Positions 5,008-19,515 of a stretch of 64,000 bases of DNA are shown here, one piece after another. The stretch is taken from the NCBI RefSeq assembly GCF_009696315.1, contig NZ_VUMG01000001.1, positions 744,001 through 808,000 on the forward strand, read 5' to 3'. The position numbers and the translations under genes are program-made. How positions within the stretch are numbered: the stretch's first letter is position 1; every line of letters starts with the position of its first letter. The DNA comes from Cutibacterium porci. GTDB lineage: Bacteria > Actinomycetota > Actinomycetes > Propionibacteriales > Propionibacteriaceae. The notes under the pieces are model-generated. The model was not told the DNA's origin. It saw only the letters and a list, made by a program, of their open reading frames with translations, and made no database searches.

Positions 5008-7430
5008 TGCACCTTCCACGGATTCTCGTTGCTGCTCCGGCCTCAGGCGGCGGAAAGACAACCGTTGCTACCGGCCTCATGGCAGCGCTTCGTGCCAGTG
5101 GCCGGCGGGTTGCACCGTTCAAGGTCGGGCCAGACTACATTGATCCTGGATACCACTCGATGGCGAGCGGACGTCCTGGTCGCAACCTCGACTCCGTGAT
5201 GTGCGGTGACGAGCTTATGGCACCTCTGTTAGCCCACGGGTTCATCACCCCCGACCCGGCCGATATTGCGGTCATTGAGGGGGTGATGGGGCTGTTTGAC
5301 GGTCAGCTTGGGACTGGCCGAGGTTCAAGCGCCGAGATTGCCACAACGACGAAAACCCCGGTCGTTGTGGTCGTTGATACCGCTCATGCATCGCTTACCC
5401 ATGCTGCCGTCGTCTCCGGGTTGGCGACGTTTGACCCCGACGTCACCGTCGCGGGAGTAATCCTTAACCGGGTGGCCTCTGCCCGTCACGGTGCCGAAGT
5501 CGCTCGCGGCCTGGACCGACTAGGCATTCCAGTACTCGGCCAGATCCCGCGCACTGAGTCGATCTTTGTGCCGTCACGTCATCTCGGCTTGGTGCCCGCA
5601 GCGGAATGGGAGGATTCCGCCGCCAAAGTTGCCGGATTGGGAGACCTCATTGCTGAGCATGTGGATCTCGACGCGGTGATGGACCTGGCTGCCGCTGCTG
5701 CGGACCTCGACGTCGAGCCGTGGGATCCGATGGCCGCGCTGGAATCTGTCGACTGGCACGCTCATTCTTTCGACGAGCCGCCACTAGTGGGTATTTTTGC
5801 CGGACGCGCCTTCACGTTCCGCTATCCCGAGACCACCGAGATGCTGACCGCTGCAGGATTCCGGGTCGTCGACGTCGATCCACTCAACGATCGACGCCTT
5901 CCTGACGGCATTCGCGGGCTGTATCTGGGGGGAGGCTTCCCCGAAATGCACGCAGCCGATCTGGAAACTAACTCGGAGCTGGCGGCCGATGTGCGGCGCC
6001 GCGCAGAGGCCGGGATGCCGATCGTCGCTGAGTGCGCCGGATTGCTGTATCTGTGTCGCCATCTTGACGGACACGAGATGGCTGGCGTGCTACCGATGGA
6101 TGCGGCTATGGCAAAGCGGCTTACGATGGGGTACCGCGTCGCGACACGTGACTCCATCAGCGTCGTTGGCCACGAATTCCACCGCACCACGACGACTCTG
6201 CTGTCCGGTCTTGAGCCGGCGTGGCACATCACAATGCCCGACGGAGCCGATCGCGCCGAAGGAGCCTTGGCTGACCCAGCAGGAGTAGGACGGCCCACCA
6301 TCCAGGCGTCGTACCTGCACCTGCATTGGGCCGGCCAGCCTGCCCAAGCAGCGTGGTTTTCTCGCGAGGTGGCCAGGTTCCACGCGAGCCGACGTGGCCG
6401 AGACGGTGAACCCGATCTCAACCATCACGGGGATCGCGACATTGCCGATGGTCTCATCGACCTGGCCGTCAACGTCCGCGTGGCCGAGCCTCCGCAGTGG
6501 CTGCGCGACGCCGTCACCTCTACCGAGCATGAGTGGGCTCGTTACCCTGACGCCACACCAGCTCGCGATGCCCTAGCCGTCATGCATGGGGTGCCAACCG
6601 ACATGGTGCTGCCCACCGCTGGTGCCGCAGAGGCCTTCCCACTCATCGCGGCTCTTGAACCGCGTCGCGCAGTGATCGTCCACCCCCAATTTACCGAGCC
6701 AGAGGTTGCTCTGAGAGGGGCGGGCGTCAGCGTCAACCGGTACATTCTCAAAGCTTCCGACGGGTTCACTCTCGATCCGGCCCTGGTGCCCGATGACGCC
6801 GACCTTGTCATTATCGGGAATCCTACGAATCCCACTGGCAGGCTTCACCCTGCCACTGATCTCACAGCCCTGCGTCGTCCAGGAAGGATCCTCGTCGTGG
6901 ACGAGGCCTTCATGGACGCTACCGATGAGTCCCAGTCTCTCATTGGAGGCGATATGGGTGATCTCCTCGTCCTACGTTCCCTGACGAAGACCTACGGGCT
7001 AGCTGGAATCCGGGCAGGATATGTCGTTGGCGATCGGCGACTCATCGCGCGACTGGCGGACCACCAGACTCCATGGTCGGTGTCAACCCCAGCTGTTGCA
7101 GCCATGATCGCCTGCACTAGTGACGAGGCCAGACGCTTCCGGGCCCAGCTACGCGATGATATCCCGGCCGCCCGCGCCGACCTCGTTGAGAGGCTCACAA
7201 ATCTTGGATTGAGCGTCGTCGACTCCGAGGCCCCCTTCGTTCTTGTCAACACAGCATCCCTCAGCGGGAGCTCGATACGCCAACCCCTTGCTGACCGTGG
7301 TTTCGCGGTGAGACGGGGGGAGACGTTCCCTGGGCTAGGACCTACCTGGATCAGGCTCGCAGTGCGTGACTCGAACATCCACGCTGGGCTTGCTCACGCC
7401 ATCTCCGATCTGACAACACACCGCAACTAA
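5007..7430 (+). CDS. cobB: Fusion of cobyrinate a,c-diamide synthase (CobB) and threonine-phosphate decarboxylase-like aminotransferase (CobC/CobD)
   Basis: The product is about 807 aa. Residues 1-460 form a CobB/CbiA amidotransferase: P-loop-like A-P-A-S-G-G-G-K-T-T, K-V-G-P-D-Y-I-D-P-G-Y-H, E-G-V-M-G-L-F-D-G, and a class I-like glutaminase region with a candidate nucleophile Cys343 in V-A-E-C-A-G-L-L-Y. Residues ~475-807 form a PLP-dependent class I/II aminotransferase: N-P-T-N-P-T-G, V-D-E-A-F-M-D and S-L-T-K-T-Y-G-L-A-G-I-R with Lys661 as the likely PLP lysine. Such proteins provide (R)-1-amino-2-propanol phosphate for the nucleotide-loop arm. The two steps act on different substrates, so the fusion probably serves co-expression or complex formation. 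ATG 5007 is chosen for the overlap; GTGs at 5001 and 5004 are alternatives. Confidence 0.93.
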   Translation: MHLPRILVAAPASGGGKTTVATGLMAALRASGRRVAPFKVGPDYIDPGYHSMASGRPGRNLDSVMCGDELMAPLLAHGFITPDPADIAVIEGVMGLFDGQLGTGRGSSAEIATTTKTPVVVVVDTAHASLTHAAVVSGLATFDPDVTVAGVILNRVASARHGAEVARGLDRLGIPVLGQIPRTESIFVPSRHLGLVPAAEWEDSAAKVAGLGDLIAEHVDLDAVMDLAAAAADLDVEPWDPMAALESVDWHAHSFDEPPLVGIFAGRAFTFRYPETTEMLTAAGFRVVDVDPLNDRRLPDGIRGLYLGGGFPEMHAADLETNSELAADVRRRAEAGMPIVAECAGLLYLCRHLDGHEMAGVLPMDAAMAKRLTMGYRVATRDSISVVGHEFHRTTTTLLSGLEPAWHITMPDGADRAEGALADPAGVGRPTIQASYLHLHWAGQPAQAAWFSREVARFHASRRGRDGEPDLNHHGDRDIADGLIDLAVNVRVAEPPQWLRDAVTSTEHEWARYPDATPARDALAVMHGVPTDMVLPTAGAAEAFPLIAALEPRRAVIVHPQFTEPEVALRGAGVSVNRYILKASDGFTLDPALVPDDADLVIIGNPTNPTGRLHPATDLTALRRPGRILVVDEAFMDATDESQSLIGGDMGDLLVLRSLTKTYGLAGIRAGYVVGDRRLIARLADHQTPWSVSTPAVAAMIACTSDEARRFRAQLRDDIPAARADLVERLTNLGLSVVDSEAPFVLVNTASLSGSSIRQPLADRGFAVRRGETFPGLGPTWIRLAVRDSNIHAGLAHAISDLTTHRN

Positions 7431-12609: not shown

Positions 12610-12800
12610 CTGATCTTGGGCGTTGATACTGCTGCGCTGGTGTAGTGGTTTTCACGGGATTTGTTTTTCTCCGGGTATCTTGCGCCATGACCACAGCCCA
12701 GCGCGTGCCCTAGTGCGCCTGCGCCATACGACCTACTGCGGTGTCGTGCCAGATTGCGTCGGGTGCTTTCGGCGTCTGAGCGGGAGCGTTGTGGTAAGGT

Positions 12801-12864
12801 ATCATGTAATACAAGTTACCTGGCTATACAAGTTTCTGATTAGACGAATCTCTGCTGATACAAG
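12801..12864 (+). promoter_or_regulatory. Candidate PadR promoter/operator with three ATACAAG repeats
   Basis: The heptamer ATACAAG occurs at 12809-12815, 12826-12832 and 12858-12864. The first two are 17 bases apart and lie within an AT-rich patch unlike the GC-rich surroundings. The third abuts the AAGGAGG of the padR gene. PadR proteins usually repress their own operon, so autoregulation here is an inference. The rest of 12610-12800 shows no convincing gene. Confidence 0.45.
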
Positions 12865-12873
12865 GAGGACCTG

Positions 12874-13200
12874 GTGACGGAGTCCCAGCTGCGTAAGGGA
12901 ACTGTCGAGTTGATTGTGCTCGATTTGCTGGATTCTTCCTCGTCGTACGGCGGTCAGCTTCTCGATCGTCTTGTTGAGGAAGCTGGTGTGGAGGTGTCGT
13001 CTGGCACGCTCTACCCGCTGCTTGGCAGGCTGCGCAAGTCGGGGTTGGTGACGACGACATGGGAGGAGTCTCCGATCGGTCCTCCTCGAAAAATCTACGA
13101 GCTTACGCCTGCTGGTACGAAACGATTGAGTCAACTCAAAGCTGAATGGGACGTACTAGCCCAAGCAGTCACACGAATAACAGTACAAAAAGGGAGCTAG
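12874..13200 (+). CDS. PadR-family transcriptional regulator
   Basis: The 108 aa protein has a winged-helix PadR domain: L-R-K-G-T-V-E-L-I-V-L-D-L-L near residues 6-19, S-Y-G-G-Q-L, S-S-G-T-L-Y-P-L-L-G-R-L and G-P-P-R-K-I-Y-E-L-T-P-A-G. It starts at a GTG after AAGGAGG. PadR regulators of this short class commonly respond to small molecules or antimicrobials and repress an adjacent membrane or transporter operon. Here the next gene, 2 bases on, encodes a DUF5808-like protein. It is presumably co-transcribed and autoregulated through the ATACAAG repeats. Confidence 0.92.
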   Translation: MTESQLRKGTVELIVLDLLDSSSSYGGQLLDRLVEEAGVEVSSGTLYPLLGRLRKSGLVTTTWEESPIGPPRKIYELTPAGTKRLSQLKAEWDVLAQAVTRITVQKGS

Positions 13201-13202
13201 TG

Positions 13203-13919
13203 ATGGCGTGGTTCACTAAAGGCGACGATGATCGCACATACATTTTCGGGCTTCCCCTTTCGAAATTATGGGAGGGGGATGCGAACGCACTTCTTGACAC
13301 GTTCGAACCGGAAAATCCGCATCTTTTTGTCCCTAGAAGCTATGGCTTAGGTTGGACGATCAATTTTGGAAAGATCGCAGTCAAGGCTGGTTGGATTCGC
13401 CCGGATGACTCTATCCCTGATTTAGTTGACTTTATTCCAGATTCTGTACGCCGCTCAATAGTGTTGGCGCAAGTTGCTGGGAACGTCGCGCTCATAGCTA
13501 GCGCAGCGCAGGTAGCCAGACACGACTTTGTGGCAACAGGTTGGAGCCTAGGTGGGCTACCGAAAAGATACTCTCGGGGAAAGAATCTCGCCCTCGCAAT
13601 GATTCTGACTGCCGGGGTTCTCACGGCTCTTCCCAGTGTCGTGAGGTGCCACGAAGCCGAGTCGCATGAGGCAATCAAGCTCAGCTATCACGCAGATCAA
13701 TTGGGTTTCACTTCGGCGTCGGTAGTTGGGCTGGTGGCCGCTAATAGGAGCGCCGGTGCTTCAAACCAACGCCAGTTTGTCGCCGTTGTAGCGCCATTTT
13801 TAGGCTTGCTCGTCAGCGGAGGGGTGAAACTCACCTGCGTCAAAACTGCACTTCGTAACCTCAACAAGCAATTGCGAGCCGGGGTAGTAGGAGATGGAGG
13901 CATTGGCGAGCAACAGTGA
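13203..13919 (+). CDS. DUF5808-like membrane protein
   Basis: The 238 aa protein has an N-terminal segment P-H-L-F-V-P-R-S-Y-G-L-G-W-T-I-N-F-G at about residues 40-57, resembling the DUF5808 motif that follows PadR or DUF1648 contexts in Gram-positive bacteria. Hydrophobic stretches follow at about 93-106, 131-148 and 200-213. The function is unknown. It starts at an ATG 2 bases after padR, with GGGAGC overlapping the padR stop, so it is the probable target of that regulator. The DUF assignment is from memory and moderate. Confidence 0.7.
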   Translation: MAWFTKGDDDRTYIFGLPLSKLWEGDANALLDTFEPENPHLFVPRSYGLGWTINFGKIAVKAGWIRPDDSIPDLVDFIPDSVRRSIVLAQVAGNVALIASAAQVARHDFVATGWSLGGLPKRYSRGKNLALAMILTAGVLTALPSVVRCHEAESHEAIKLSYHADQLGFTSASVVGLVAANRSAGASNQRQFVAVVAPFLGLLVSGGVKLTCVKTALRNLNKQLRAGVVGDGGIGEQQ

Positions 13920-14016
13920 TGGTCTCACAATCGTCGGTGCGCTTAGTAGTCACGCGCGTTACGCTCATGGGGGCATTGGCGAGGGTTGTCGTTCTCCTGA
14001 CCCGGTGGGGCGTTTT
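13920..14016 (+). pseudogene. Decayed fragment related to the membrane gene at 14907
   Basis: The 39 bases from GCTCATGGGGG at 13963 to the TGAC ending near 14001 match the interior of the downstream membrane gene (from 15122) at 32 of 39 positions, and all seven differences are transitions. Translated, L-M-G-A-L-A-R-V-V-V-L-L-T mirrors L-M-G-V-L-A-R-V-V-A-P-L-T. No intact gene surrounds the fragment, and a transposase relic begins directly after it. It is best read as a remnant of a second copy of the cassette. Confidence 0.45.
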
Positions 14017-14017
14017 G

Positions 14018-14275
14018 GCGTTTTCTATGCACTGCACCAACGCGGCGAGCACGTCCTCGCTGCAGCAGAGGACGTGCCGAGCCCGAGCCGGACGCCCGCT
14101 ACGTGCTGGCGGATCATCGTGCGGGCATGGTCGGCCAGCCCGTGACTTAGCCAATTGTGCCCACGATCTCGCCCTTCTCCTGCTTGGGCTACGTCGCCAC
14201 TTGTGAGGACAGGATTGCCTTGCGCTGAGCCACCGTCAACTCCATCCATTCATCCTGAACCCACACGGGAACTTT
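14018..14275 (-). pseudogene. Degraded integrase-core transposase N-terminus
   Basis: On the minus strand one frame reads V-W-V-Q-D-E-W-M-E-L-T-V-A-Q-R-K-A-I-L-S-S-Q-V-A-T then a stop. Further along, other frames give V-T-G-W, D-H-A-R and E-D-V-L-A-A-L-V-Q-C. These pieces follow the order seen in actinobacterial DDE transposases that begin M-E-L-T-x-A-Q-R-K-A and contain T-G-W-x-R-D-x-A-R. At least two frameshifts and one stop make it non-functional. No terminal inverted repeats were recognised. The bases 14276-14400 hold nothing recognisable. Confidence 0.6.
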
Positions 14276-14419
14276 GGGGTGACTCAACGAAGCACTCCAC
14301 GCGGGCATGGTGGATAGCCAATGCGAAGCGTTGAAAAATCTTTGGATAGGGATAGCCTAGCACCTGGTAGATATTTCATATTCAAGTAGCGCAATTCAAC
14401 TCACAATGAAGGTATCGAT

Positions 14420-14500
14420 ATGAGGATAAGGAAGTCCGTCTCGGCTGTGGTGGCGACGGTTATCGTTGCGGCCCTTTCAGTGGCACTGCTGGCTCGATGA
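14420..14500 (+). pseudogene. Signal-peptide segment of a secreted peptide gene, cut off by a frameshift
   Basis: An ATG at 14420, 7 bases after GAAGG, opens a 26-codon frame: two Arg and a Lys, then V-S-A-V-V-A-T-V-I-V-A-A-L-S-V-A-L-L-A-R and TGA. It is a textbook Sec signal-peptide n- and h-region that stops just where the next frame starts (ATGA at 14497). One extra base near 14495 would join the two as ...L-L-A-P-M-T-V-V-A-H-A-E-P, a complete signal peptide with an A-H-A cleavage site. I therefore read it as the 5' part of the gene at 14497-14898, separated by a one-base deletion. Translational coupling is the alternative. Confidence 0.6.
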
Positions 14501-14898
14501 CTGTAGTTGCACATGCGGAGCCGATATCTAACAAGAGTCAAACGGTTACTTTAGCGACGCAGGCCTTGTTGGATCGCAACGATCTGGCCCATGGCGGCGG
14601 TGGTCGTGAAGTTGCGCGATGGCATGGTGGAATGCCAGTAGCGGAAGTGGCCAATTCTCACCAAGTATCCACGTATAGTTGGACATCATGGGGGCGCAGA
14701 GCCGCCCTTTTTGTGCTGCGCCATTCCGTGCACAAACTACCAGCCAAAATCAGGCCTTGGGCCAACAAAATCGCAGATGTTCTTGAGCAAACAGAGATAT
14801 GGGAAAAGGCTCCTATTATTTTCACCTTGGGTAAAGCCGGGATCCCGTACGACGTTGCCAAGGCGGCTGCAGATTGGATCATTTTCTTCCTAGGCTGA
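14497..14898 (+). CDS. Candidate secreted bacteriocin-like peptide (5' part frameshifted)
   Basis: The 133 aa reading starts at an ATG without its own ribosome-binding site; M-T-V-V-A-H-A-E-P looks like the end of a signal peptide. The predicted mature part is about 126 aa: a Gly/His-rich stretch (G-G-G-G-R-E-V-A-R-W-H-G-G), a Trp-rich Y-S-W-T-S-W-G-R-R segment, a cationic region K-L-P-A-K-I-R-P-W and a hydrophobic C-terminus ending D-W-I-I-F-F-L-G. No family was recognised. The small secreted, cationic, Trp-containing product followed within 8 bases by a polytopic membrane gene resembles bacteriocin plus immunity pairs, but no function is established. Local GC is lower than in the flanks. 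Confidence 0.5.
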   Translation: MTVVAHAEPISNKSQTVTLATQALLDRNDLAHGGGGREVARWHGGMPVAEVANSHQVSTYSWTSWGRRAALFVLRHSVHKLPAKIRPWANKIADVLEQTEIWEKAPIIFTLGKAGIPYDVAKAAADWIIFFLG

Positions 14899-14906
14899 GG
14901 TTCGAC

Positions 14907-15353
14907 GTGGTAGTATCTAAGAAATTCGATGATTTGCTGGGGATGTTAGGCGCAATTGTCTTTTTTCTCGTCATCGTTATTCTTGTTATGTCCCCCTTCA
15001 TTATGATTCCAGCGTTGTTCGCCTTGGTATTTCAGGAGTGCTATCTAGATTCGCCGTGGACGTGGGAGACTGTTGTCCTGGGCGGATTAGTGCTGTTCGC
15101 ACTGGGGATGGGTGTTTCCTTGCTCATGGGGGTGTTGGCGAGGGTCGTCGCCCCCTTGACTCATCCTGTGGTTAACAAGGTCTTTAAAGGGGTTCTTGAG
15201 TTCCTTGTGCTGTGGTGGTTTTATTCTACTCTCATGCACCCAACTAGCTATGCCTTTTGGGCGAGCATTGTGGTGATGATTATGACCACTGCTACCGAAC
15301 CCATTCTCGATAGGGCCATCGAACGGCAGAAGCACGCCTCCAACCAGTCTTGA
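14907..15353 (+). CDS. Small polytopic membrane protein, candidate immunity protein
   Basis: The 148 aa protein starts at GTG 14907 after GAGG. It has hydrophobic segments at about residues 9-42 (probably two helices), 55-80, 95-110 and 118-132, with a charged C-terminal tail (D-R-A-I-E-R-Q-K-H). No known family is recognised. Size and position right after a small secreted peptide are typical of immunity or accessory membrane proteins of bacteriocin loci, which is the inferred role. A fragment of a similar gene lies 1.1 kb upstream. Confidence 0.55.
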   Translation: MVVSKKFDDLLGMLGAIVFFLVIVILVMSPFIMIPALFALVFQECYLDSPWTWETVVLGGLVLFALGMGVSLLMGVLARVVAPLTHPVVNKVFKGVLEFLVLWWFYSTLMHPTSYAFWASIVVMIMTTATEPILDRAIERQKHASNQS

Positions 15354-15504
15354 CCCGGTAGGGGCACTGGGTGCTTTCTGTGCGCCGAGAAATCCATGCC
15401 GATTTTCTACTGCTGTGGGGAAGGCAGCCCGATATCTTCGTAGTTGAGGGCGGTAGACGATGCAAGCGGTGTGTCTCGACGAGCTCGGTGTGGTGGCCGA
15501 ATTG

Positions 15505-15969
15505 TCAGGCCATTACCTGTTCCCATTCGTCGCGGTGGTGCAGCATGGTGCGGGCGGCTTTTTGGGCACCGTCGATGGAATGGTTGGCTCCCCATCCGCA
15601 CTGCACTTCGTTAGCGGCGGGGGTGGCGTCGAGTTCGAGGATGTCACGCAGGGTGGTCTCGACGAGTTCGCATGTGCCGGGGATATCTGGCTCGCCGACC
15701 ATGATGAGGTAGAACCCGGTCTGGCATCCCATCGGCCCGAAGTCGACAACGGATTGTGAGTGGTTTCGTACGCACTCGGCGAAGGAATGTTCAAGCGAGT
15801 GCACCGCAGGCATCTCGAGATGGTCCTTATTGGGCTGGCAGAACCTCACGTCGTACTTGGTAAGGGTGTCACCAGCCGGCAGATGCTTCACATCGGCGAC
15901 CCGGATAAATGGTGCCGCTACCTTGGTGTGGTCCAGGTTGAAACTTTCGACGTTCATCTTGTGTGCCAT
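15505..15969 (-). CDS. luxS: S-ribosylhomocysteine lyase LuxS
   Basis: The 154 aa protein has [13 protein letters not shown] near the N-terminus, the metal-binding H-S-L-E-H (His57, His61) and a third ligand Cys in N-E-V-Q-C-G-W-G. It cleaves S-ribosylhomocysteine to homocysteine and DPD, the precursor of autoinducer-2, in the activated methyl cycle. ATG 15969 is preferred because GAGG lies 8 bases before it; a start 33 bases earlier is possible. The luxS and manA genes run in the same direction with about 55 bases between them. Confidence 0.96.
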
Positions 15970-16024
15970 GAGCCCATCCTCTCGCATCGGTGCGAATTCC
16001 ACATAGGTAACCAGTCAGCGACGG

Positions 16025-17206
16025 TCACAGCCCGGCTGCAGCAACAAATCCGTCGCAATTTCCGTCAACTTGCACTTGCTCGCCTGCCGGAATCCACATG
16101 GCCTGACCACGGACGATCTCGTCAGTGTTGTGAGAGCTTGAGCAAACCGCATACCCATCTGTAATGAGGAGTATTCGAGCTAAGTCGCTGGCCGGCATCA
16201 TGACGGGACAGGTGGTGTCGAGGTCGAGCTGCCAGAGTCGGAACTGGTTGTCGACGCCCGGGAATACTCGCATTCCTGGGGCTACCTCCTGCGCCGCAAT
16301 CATCCGTGGCTCCTGGGTCTGGAACGAGACAATGTGGATGAGGGAGTCGACGTCAATGTGCTTATTGGTGAGTCCGCCACGCACAACATTGTCGGAATCG
16401 GCCATGATCTCAATGCCCGTACCCGAAAGGTATGAGTGCATGAGTCCTGGGGGTACAGACAACGCCTGTCCCGGTTTCACATGAACGCGGTTGAGCATCA
16501 GTGCCGCAAGGATCGATGGATCTCCGGGGAAATACTCGTCGAGCTCGACGGCAGTGCGCGCGAACTCGCCCAGCGGTGTGTCTTCTCCCACATGGTTAAC
16601 GGCTCCTGACACTACTTCGGTAACGATCTGACGCCGTAGGTCGTCGCCGGCGAGGCAGTCGAGAAAAGTTTCGGCGAGAGCGGCAGAGCCAGAACGTTCA
16701 GTGAGCGATCCCAATACGGGGTCTGTTGGTGTGCGGACGTCAAGCCCGTCAAAGAGTTGACGGGTCTCGTGGGGATCACGGAACCCACACAGCCCCTCGA
16801 AATCGGTGAGGGCGACGAGAATTTCGGGCTTGGGCCAGTCGTCGACGAAGGTGCGACGGGGGTCGTCAACATCGATACCGGCCTGGTTCTCGCGCAGGAA
16901 TCCTGCTCGTGCCATCGCAGCGTCAGGATGAGCCTGCAGACTTAGCGGATGCCGTGCCGAGAGGATTTTGAGGAGAAAAGGTAAACGGGTGCCGAAGGCG
17001 TCGCGACTGCGATCCCCGAGTTCGTCGGGGTGGGCGTGGATGTAGTCAATGAGCGGTGTGCCGTCGAGGGTCGACGGTGAGGTTTCATGAGCCCCCAACC
17101 AGTACTCGGCCCAGGGCTTTCCATCAGTATCTTTCCCGAGGATGTCTGGGATCGCGTCGTAGGAGCCCCAGGAGTACGTCCGGACCGTTCCGGTCAGGCG
17201 TTTCAT
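16025..17206 (-). CDS. manA: Mannose-6-phosphate isomerase, class I
   Basis: The 393 aa protein shows the type I phosphomannose isomerase zinc-site motifs: L-Q-A-H-P-D near residues 95-100 with the following Glu region, and P-G-L-M-H-S-Y-L-S-G-T-G-I-E-I-M-A-D-S-D-N-V-V-R-G-G-L-T-x-K-H, the catalytic Y-x-D-x-N-H-K-P-E-like region. It interconverts mannose-6-P and fructose-6-P in the cytosol. It starts at ATG 17206 and ends just before luxS, with which it is likely co-transcribed. Confidence 0.95.
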   Translation of the reverse strand: MKRLTGTVRTYSWGSYDAIPDILGKDTDGKPWAEYWLGAHETSPSTLDGTPLIDYIHAHPDELGDRSRDAFGTRLPFLLKILSARHPLSLQAHPDAAMARAGFLRENQAGIDVDDPRRTFVDDWPKPEILVALTDFEGLCGFRDPHETRQLFDGLDVRTPTDPVLGSLTERSGSAALAETFLDCLAGDDLRRQIVTEVVSGAVNHVGEDTPLGEFARTAVELDEYFPGDPSILAALMLNRVHVKPGQALSVPPGLMHSYLSGTGIEIMADSDNVVRGGLTNKHIDVDSLIHIVSFQTQEPRMIAAQEVAPGMRVFPGVDNQFRLWQLDLDTTCPVMMPASDLARILLITDGYAVCSSSHNTDEIVRGQAMWIPAGEQVQVDGNCDGFVAAAGL

Positions 17207-17254
17207 AGTCTGCCTCTCGTCTATGGTGTCGCATCGTTGGAGACGCCGTAGGTG

Positions 17255-17539
17255 TTATCCGAGTAATTGTGCGCTACGGGAGCGGCGTTGCTGGCTGCGA
17301 ACCCGCTGGAGCCGTCCCACCAGGGACGGTGCGTACCGTGCGGCCCTCTCGTCGTCGATGAGCTCGTTGAGCCGCAGGTGGTATCGAGGCGATGACAGGC
17401 CAAGTCTGTCGCGAATGACGGCCTCCTTATCGACGCCCAGATTCCCGGTTTGCCAGGATCCCTCGAGGTCCAAAATCGCGCGGTCCGAGGCACACAGCTC
17501 GTCGGGTTCTGCGGATTCGGGGGTGCTGGAATCTGACAC
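17255..17539 (-). CDS. DUF3263 protein, probably leaderless
   Basis: The 94 aa protein contains D-R-A-I-L-D-L-E, a Trp, then V-I-R-D-R-L-G-L-S-S-P-R-Y-H-L-R-L-N-E-L-I and V-G-R-L-Q-R-V-R. This is the helix-turn-helix-like DUF3263 fold found throughout actinobacteria and presumed to bind DNA. The GTG at 17539 lies 6 bases after TACACT, a good -10 box, so the mRNA probably starts at the GTG. It is transcribed away from groEL and shares the intergenic region holding two CIRCE elements. Confidence 0.82.
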   Translation of the reverse strand: MSDSSTPESAEPDELCASDRAILDLEGSWQTGNLGVDKEAVIRDRLGLSSPRYHLRLNELIDDERAARYAPSLVGRLQRVRSQQRRSRSAQLLG

Positions 17540-17625
17540 AGTGCCAGTGTAGGTGTCACTTCGCAGGTACGGCGTCGTTGCGGTCTCCAGGATCAGCAGA
17601 GTGAGCCATTTTCCGCCATGAAATC

Positions 17626-17652
17626 TTTGCACTCGTAGGGTGTGAGTGCTAA
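17626..17652 (+). promoter_or_regulatory. CIRCE element 1 (HrcA operator)
   Basis: TTTGCACTC (17626-17634), nine bases, then GAGTGCTAA (17644-17652) match the CIRCE consensus TTAGCACTC-N9-GAGTGCTAA at 16 of 18 arm positions. HrcA repressor binds this site and is released on heat stress. Confidence 0.93.
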
Positions 17653-19491
<1,839 letters not shown>

Positions 19492-19515
19492 TCTCGCATC
19501 GCCTTCGCTGACGTG

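What the first reader, a model, noticed from the sequence alone, without database searches (positions are those of the whole stretch)
14420..15353. Frameshifted secreted peptide plus membrane protein: candidate bacteriocin-immunity cassette
A well-formed signal peptide with a good ribosome-binding site (ATG 14420) ends in a stop that overlaps the ATG of a second frame (14497). Adding one base near 14495 joins both into a single protein with an A-H-A cleavage site and a cationic, Trp-containing, hydrophobic-tailed mature part of about 126 residues. A polytopic 148-residue membrane protein starts 8 bases later. Neither product matches a family I know. It may be an undescribed secreted antimicrobial system, switched off by a one-base deletion in this strain or by a sequencing error.
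Basis: partly seen in the sequence, partly recalled or inferred. Interest (0 to 1): 0.75.

Follow-up and report, generated by a model that had tools for sequence, protein, structure and literature searches.

The report
Broken bacteriocin gene beside kept immunity
A skin-type Cutibacterium carries a small two-gene cassette, probably an unnamed secreted antibacterial peptide and the membrane protein that protects against it, in which the peptide gene is broken while the protector gene is intact, as also happens in some relatives.

Summary
In detail: a signal-peptide ORF (14420-14500), an overlapping second frame (14497-14898), and a membrane-protein gene (14907-15353) 8 bases later. Nine of 293 genomes of the order (own included, two genera) carry the peptide core. 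Five of the 9 have one intact 164-173-residue secreted precursor; four are broken or lack the signal, each at a different place. The membrane gene follows directly and is open in 9 of 9. A second cassette in one genome keeps only a peptide remnant. The cassette differs by 3.4% from its closest relative against 11.8% downstream, so it was shared recently. The C-terminal 70 residues model as four helices. No named family or solved structure matched credibly. Best reading: an undescribed Sec-secreted bacteriocin-immunity cassette, here with a dead (or misread) bacteriocin gene and kept immunity. Killing and immunity are inferred, not shown. It is a new family of a known kind; repeated loss of the weapon with retention of the shield is the interesting part.

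The parts
14420..14500 (+). 5' part of the broken peptide gene: n-region and part of the hydrophobic core of a Sec signal peptide, then a premature stop
   Evidence: the relative L021 reads on through this place into the rest of the signal peptide
14497..14898 (+). Remainder of the peptide gene in another frame: end of signal peptide (ending A-H-A), variable linker, C-terminal core
   Evidence: 58% identical to the intact L022 peptide over residues 3-133
14686..14895 (+). Conserved C-terminal core, 70 residues, net charge +4, four Trp, no Cys; predicted four-helix domain in the intact relative
   Evidence: alignments A3 and A6, AlphaFold2 model
14907..15353 (+). Putative immunity protein, 148 aa, hydrophobic, four long helices in a low-confidence model; GTG start, GAGG at 14897-14900
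   Evidence: dN/dS about 0.2
14414..15313 (.). Block of low divergence to G001/L021: 31 mismatches in 900 aligned bases, against 484 in 4,094 at 15414-19513
15505..16002 (-). luxS, downstream neighbour; the cassette lies beside it in the four Cutibacterium genomes found to have the peptide
   Evidence: Pfam LuxS E 2.8e-50
12610..14413 (.). Variable stretch between tRNA-Thr and the cassette (PadR regulator, DUF5808 protein, remainder without a recognised gene) with no blastn counterpart in the 13-kb stretches L021, L022 or L023

Best explanation
This is a two-gene bacteriocin-immunity cassette of an unnamed family. In intact relatives the first gene makes a 164-173-residue precursor. Sec exports it, signal peptidase cuts after an A-x-A motif, and the conserved C-terminal 70 residues, a cationic four-helix domain after a poorly conserved linker, would act on the membrane of close relatives (inferred). 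The second gene, directly downstream, makes a membrane protein that protects the producer (inferred). In the window the peptide gene has lost its frame inside the signal sequence, so no secreted peptide is expected, while the membrane gene is open and constrained: an immunity-only state. Shown here: the gene pair, its conservation, its recent sharing between species, and breaks of the first gene while the gene behind it stays open. Inferred: export, killing, membrane action, immunity, the selective reason.
For: (1) 9 of 293 genomes of the order carry the peptide core. In 9 of 9 the membrane gene follows at once: 8-18 bases after the stop that ends the core frame, or overlapping it in L041. (2) Peptide intact in 5 of 9 (L022, L026, L041, L042, L044). 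Broken or signal-less in 4 of 9, differently: window inside the signal; L021 in the middle plus an in-frame stop; L023 near the end; L043 with no signal peptide in its open frame. The first membrane gene is open in 9 of 9 (one-sided Fisher p 0.041); the one stop counted for G005 and G540 is the gene's own end. (3) A second cassette in the genome of L021 keeps an open membrane gene with only a C-terminal peptide remnant, 23 aligned residues, 0 of 2000 shuffles as good. (4) Window vs L021: peptide 2 synonymous and 11 nonsynonymous changes, membrane gene 12 and 8 (p 0.015); dN/dS of the membrane gene 0.16-0.30 in the 13 of 15 pairs with an estimate, some with dS above 1. (5) Cassette 3.4% divergent against 11.8% downstream, p about 1e-16; dS 0.12 in the membrane gene against 0.41-0.55 in luxS, manA and groEL. 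(6) Tandem membrane-gene copies in 3 loci (L026, L042, and L044, where the second is broken), as immunity genes often are (recalled). (7) Core charge +1 to +5 in the 5 intact copies; four helices, pLDDT mostly above 90. (8) A 207-aa secreted protein on plasmid pLME106, taken as propionicin SM1 because length and 27-residue signal fit the review and by recall of the plasmid, has the same layout, with a small hydrophobic protein gene 52 bases behind it.
Against: No activity data exist. No family library or solved structure names either protein, and fold searches gave nothing clear. The peptide core is strongly conserved between the window and L022 (dN/dS 0.10), so the window break may be recent or a base-call error; strain data were not available. 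Counts are small: 9 genomes, of which the window and L021 share a recently exchanged cassette. No transporter gene was recognised by the window cassette, and the nearest regulator, PadR, lies 1.2 kb upstream without evident link. The signal-less L043 core has charge -1. Simple hydropathy flags only 2 segments in the window membrane protein (2-4 in ten members), and its model is of low confidence (mean pLDDT 62). One tandem membrane copy (L044) is broken too, so membrane genes are not immune to decay.
Confidence: 0.7

Rival explanations
1. The cassette is as above, but the window copy is really intact and the break is a sequencing or assembly error.
For: The window shows a single frame loss in an otherwise well conserved gene; the core is strongly conserved against L022 (dN/dS 0.10). 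The assembly is a draft of 19 contigs.
Against: Peptide codons show an excess of nonsynonymous change against L021 (2:11) while the adjacent membrane gene does not; part of that excess may stem from the L021 side, which is broken too. Other genomes have different breaks, including L021 in a one-contig genome with two lesions.
Confidence: 0.25
2. The secreted peptide is a signal or surface factor and the membrane protein its receptor or export partner, not toxin and immunity.
For: No activity is known; in three other-genus loci (L026, L042, L044) a LuxR-type response regulator lies near the pair (domains).
Against: A receptor or exporter would be expected to decay with its partner, but the membrane gene is kept without a working peptide, duplicated in tandem and shared between species, as expected of immunity.
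Confidence: 0.17
3. A membrane-active toxin used on siblings (cannibalism), of the SdpC-SdpI type by mode of action.
For: Sec-exported precursor with a hydrophobic active part and a polytopic membrane immunity protein is also how SdpC-SdpI works (recalled).
Against: No SdpC or SdpI family match was returned; no processing genes were recognised beside it.
Confidence: 0.06
4. A phage lysis pair (holin-like membrane protein and partner).
For: Small membrane protein beside a small helical protein.
Against: No PHROG match at E 0.1 for either window protein; core profile not confirmed in viral contigs; the neighbours tested are not phage genes; the first protein has a signal peptide in intact relatives.
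Confidence: 0.02

Closest known systems
Propionicin SM1 of Acidipropionibacterium jensenii (taken to be the 207-aa protein of plasmid pLME106, NC_005705)
   Same: Same bacterial family; secreted precursor of about 200 residues; a small hydrophobic protein gene directly downstream.
   Different: No sequence relation: best BLASTP E 0.18, in the signal peptide; hhalign probability 0.2% (peptide) and 0.4% (membrane protein). It carries DUF2599, the window peptide does not.
Propionicin T1 / thoenicin 447
   Same: Sec-exported bacteriocin of propionibacteria, small positively charged product (passages of PMC5756557).
   Different: 96-residue precursor; resistance was proposed to come from an ABC transporter gene, not a small membrane protein. 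Sequence not compared.
Arachnicin and other aureocin A53-like leaderless bacteriocins of Actinomycetota
   Same: Cationic Trp-containing peptides, one of them from Arachnia (PMC11580447, abstract and part 1 of Results).
   Different: Those average 50 residues without leader, often with PH-domain and ABC genes; here a signal peptide, 164-173 residues and one or two membrane genes of one family.
Hypothetical protein WP_237894224.1 of a Priestia megaterium plasmid
   Same: Signal-like start, linker and a C-terminal core that aligns over 74 columns to the core profile (hhalign 95.8%, E 7e-9 for one comparison).
   Different: The membrane-protein profile finds nothing credible within the 6.3 kb held around it; the protein was first found at tblastn E 3, so a lead only.
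Immunity-only 'cheater' bacteriocin loci of pneumococci (blp)
   Same: Frameshifts remove production while immunity is kept (passages of PMC4517551).
   Different: There the exporter BlpA is the gene reported broken; here the peptide gene itself.

Membership tests
Sec-dependent unmodified (class II-like) bacteriocin with dedicated immunity | Sec signal peptide on the precursor | tested here: met
   Seen by eye in 5 of 5 intact copies; simple hydropathy at threshold 1.6 flags only 3 of 5, and no dedicated predictor was run. Window copy: signal code present but frame lost.
Sec-dependent unmodified (class II-like) bacteriocin with dedicated immunity | Small cationic helical active part | tested here: met
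   Core net charge +1 to +5 in 5 intact copies, +4 in the window; signal-less L043 -1; four helices in the model of one intact copy.
Sec-dependent unmodified (class II-like) bacteriocin with dedicated immunity | Membrane protein gene directly beside the peptide gene | tested here: met
   9 of 9 peptide-bearing genomes.
Sec-dependent unmodified (class II-like) bacteriocin with dedicated immunity | Growth inhibition of related bacteria and protection by the second gene | not testable with these tools
   Needs bench work.
Propionicin SM1 family (DUF2599) | Sequence homology of peptide and membrane partner | tested here: not met
Aureocin A53-like leaderless bacteriocins | About 50 residues, no leader peptide | tested here: not met
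   Intact relatives have 164-173 residues with a signal peptide.
Circular bacteriocins | Saposin-like helical fold | tested here: inconclusive
Circular bacteriocins | Several membrane and transport genes in the cluster; head-to-tail circularisation | tested here: inconclusive
   Only one or two membrane genes of one family were recognised in the operon; ORFs around the loci were listed, few tested against a library, and L022 has an MFS-type transporter gene upstream. Circularisation is not testable.
SdpC-SdpI | Match to SdpC or SdpI family models | tested here: inconclusive
   No such match in Pfam or NCBIfam; that these libraries hold such models is recalled.

The most novel reading that the evidence does not exclude
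An undescribed bacteriocin family, perhaps spanning Actinomycetota and Bacillota, moves as a compact cassette beside luxS among Cutibacterium species. Selection keeps its immunity half while the weapon is lost again and again, so that skin species, one with two immunity-only copies, are shielded against a producer that still exists in other Cutibacterium and oral-type relatives.
Probability: 0.35. Interest if true: 0.65.

Novelty: new member of a known kind. Interest (0 to 1): 0.5.

Why it matters
If true, it adds an unnamed Sec-secreted bacteriocin family to human skin and probably oral Actinomycetota. It would also give a compact natural case for testing the idea that commensals keep immunity after giving up the weapon. 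Intact relatives exist, so the test needs no change to the broken copy.

Tried and rejected
Named-family searches: Pfam, NCBIfam, PHROGs, PADLOC gave no credible match for peptide or membrane protein. Solved-structure searches by profile (best E 0.052 and 0.017, unrelated proteins, one a designed channel) and fold searches gave nothing to rely on; circular and leaderless bacteriocins did not appear among the rows shown, which excludes nothing. Wider genome searches: core profile A3 in 1 of 396 sampled genomes of the phylum (the window's own); core profile A6 in 3 of 394 of the class (own, G007 and one weak match at E 0.009 over 35 columns, not pursued); viral contigs none confirmed; genome contigs none with the single protein and 4 loci with the profile, of which the Alcaligenaceae match (16 residues) was dropped as chance. 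Plasmids: membrane protein no match; peptide 7 weak hits in two searches, of which only the Priestia one was followed. Weak matches of the first relatives search (G054, G063, G085, G103, G139; E 0.003-0.010) were dropped; G103 and G139 also as weak membrane-protein matches (E 0.002).

Programmed frameshift or a working two-gene split: not supported, since 5 of 9 relatives have one open frame and the others break elsewhere; not strictly excluded for this strain. Promoter and terminator scans gave no more than shuffled sequence. Literature (top-ranked titles and abstract openings only, unless stated): searches for Cutibacterium bacteriocin with immunity and pseudogene, class II, luxS with frameshift (no paper), Arachnia bacteriocin, orphan immunity and cheaters, Sec-dependent and saposin, propionicin, strain competition showed no description of this pair. 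That covers only the open-access library held.

Full report
What is there. The window lies in a draft Cutibacterium genome (G000, 19 contigs; genus inferred from the named relatives). ATG 14420 opens a 26-codon frame with the charged start and hydrophobic core of a signal peptide and stops at 14498-14500. ATG 14497 opens a 133-codon frame to 14898. GTG 14907, with GAGG six bases before it, opens a 148-codon hydrophobic protein to 15353. The neighbours are luxS (15505-16002, minus), a mannose-6-phosphate isomerase gene and groEL downstream, and tRNA-Thr, a PadR regulator and a DUF5808 protein upstream. GC falls to about 50% over the cassette, and to 51-53% at the PadR-DUF5808 stretch, against about 60% around.

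Relatives. Searching with the unmodified second frame found matches in 4 of 9 genomes of the genus, own included. A profile of the C-terminal core found 9 of 293 genomes of the order, own included, in two genera. Contig lengths identify G007 as Cutibacterium sp. MAG S24M_St_45, G005 as C. modestum M12 and G074 as [Pseudopropionibacterium] massiliense; that the latter belongs with Arachnia is recalled. G001 is unnamed; that its size fits C. acnes is recalled. The membrane-protein profile found 11 of 293 genomes: the same nine plus G008 and G573. No core was found in the 13.5 kb held around the G008 gene. In G573 the gene lies near a contig end, so a missing peptide there says nothing.

Intact and broken copies. 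One open secreted precursor is present in L022/L037 (166 aa), L026/L039 (170), L041 (164), L042 (170 with its start codon) and L044 (173). The other four of nine are not intact: the window (inside the signal peptide), L021 (middle of the gene, plus an in-frame stop in the core), L023 (near the end, the remainder found in another frame) and L043 (open frame without a signal peptide). The membrane gene directly behind is open in 9 of 9; in L044 a second tandem membrane copy is itself broken. Four of nine against none of nine gives a one-sided p of 0.041. This is modest, and the window and L021 are not independent in origin. They are independent in lesion: each is open where the other is broken. 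The genome of L021 has a second cassette (L024) whose membrane gene is open and whose peptide is reduced to a C-terminal remnant; the core profile did not pick that remnant up.

Movement. Window and L021 differ by 31 of 900 aligned bases at 14414-15313 but by 484 of 4,094 at 15414-19513 (p about 1e-16). dS is 0.12 in the membrane gene against 0.41, 0.55 and 0.51 in luxS, manA and groEL. Alignment starts 6 bases before the peptide start; upstream, blastn found no further match back to the tRNA-Thr region. L021 carries a 163-base duplicate of the luxS 3' end on the other side of the cassette (also the partial luxS). In C. modestum the cassette lies on the other side of luxS. These point to recent exchange at a variable site; the mechanism of transfer is inferred.

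Selection. Against L021 the peptide codons compared (119, own frames only) show 2 synonymous and 11 nonsynonymous changes, the membrane gene 12 and 8 (Fisher p 0.015). Over all pairs the membrane gene has dN/dS 0.16-0.30 in the 13 of 15 with an estimate, some with saturated dS. The core, compared between the window and the intact L022, has 0.10. The peptide was thus under constraint until recently and the membrane gene still appears to be. A base-call error in the window cannot be excluded without reads or other strains.

Structure. AlphaFold2 on the intact L037 mature peptide (4 sequences) gives residues 1-60 pLDDT under 50 and four helices between 54 and 132, mostly above 90 from residue 70. 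The membrane protein models as four long helices at mean pLDDT 62. Foldseek and VIA-align found no clear match for the peptide; the membrane model was not searched.

How it most likely works. By established knowledge of Sec-secreted bacteriocins (propionicin SM1 and T1 in the passages read of PMC5756557), the precursor is exported and cut after A-x-A, and the helical core acts on the membrane of relatives that lack the membrane protein. The arrangement matches the locus of pLME106 taken to be propionicin SM1, whose sequences are unrelated. The window organism would be an immunity-only carrier, a state described for pneumococcal blp loci (passages of PMC4517551). Killing, immunity and benefit are inference.

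Novelty. No family library searched names either protein and the paper searches named in Tried and rejected listed no description. A Priestia plasmid protein shares the layout and the core by profile comparison (95.8%), against 0.2% and 0.5% for two unrelated proteins with the same profile and 0.4% for the membrane profile. It was picked from seven weak tblastn hits of two searches, the others not profile-tested, so it is a lead. I rate the find as a new family of a known kind.

Noticed in passing
window 13963-13991 and 15122-15150: A 29-base near-repeat (90%) of the membrane gene lies upstream of the cassette and reads LMGALARVV in an ORF there; perhaps a remnant of an older membrane-gene copy.
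   Followed up: no
L041:3130-3940 (-): About 400 bases upstream of the intact cassette in G540 lies another signal-peptide-like protein (176 aa) overlapped by a small hydrophobic protein (108 aa); no Pfam match for either, no NCBIfam match for the 176-aa protein and no relation to the core profile. Possibly a second bacteriocin pair.
   Followed up: partly
L026:5867-6517, L042:5712-6347, L044:3339-3992: A LuxR-type response regulator lies near the cassette, on the opposite strand, in three loci of the other genus (domains). It may regulate the cassette there.
   Followed up: partly
L021:5161-5323 and 7257-7419: A 163-base direct repeat of the luxS 3' end (91%) flanks the cassette.
   Followed up: partly
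L045:2782-3258: Priestia megaterium plasmid protein WP_237894224.1 with the same layout and a core aligning to this family; LytTR and LuxR-type regulators nearby, no credible match to the membrane-protein profile in the 6.3 kb held.
   Followed up: partly
window 12874-13919: PadR regulator overlapping a 257-residue protein with a DUF5808 match, after tRNA-Thr, in a low-GC stretch without blastn counterpart in L021-L023.
   Followed up: no
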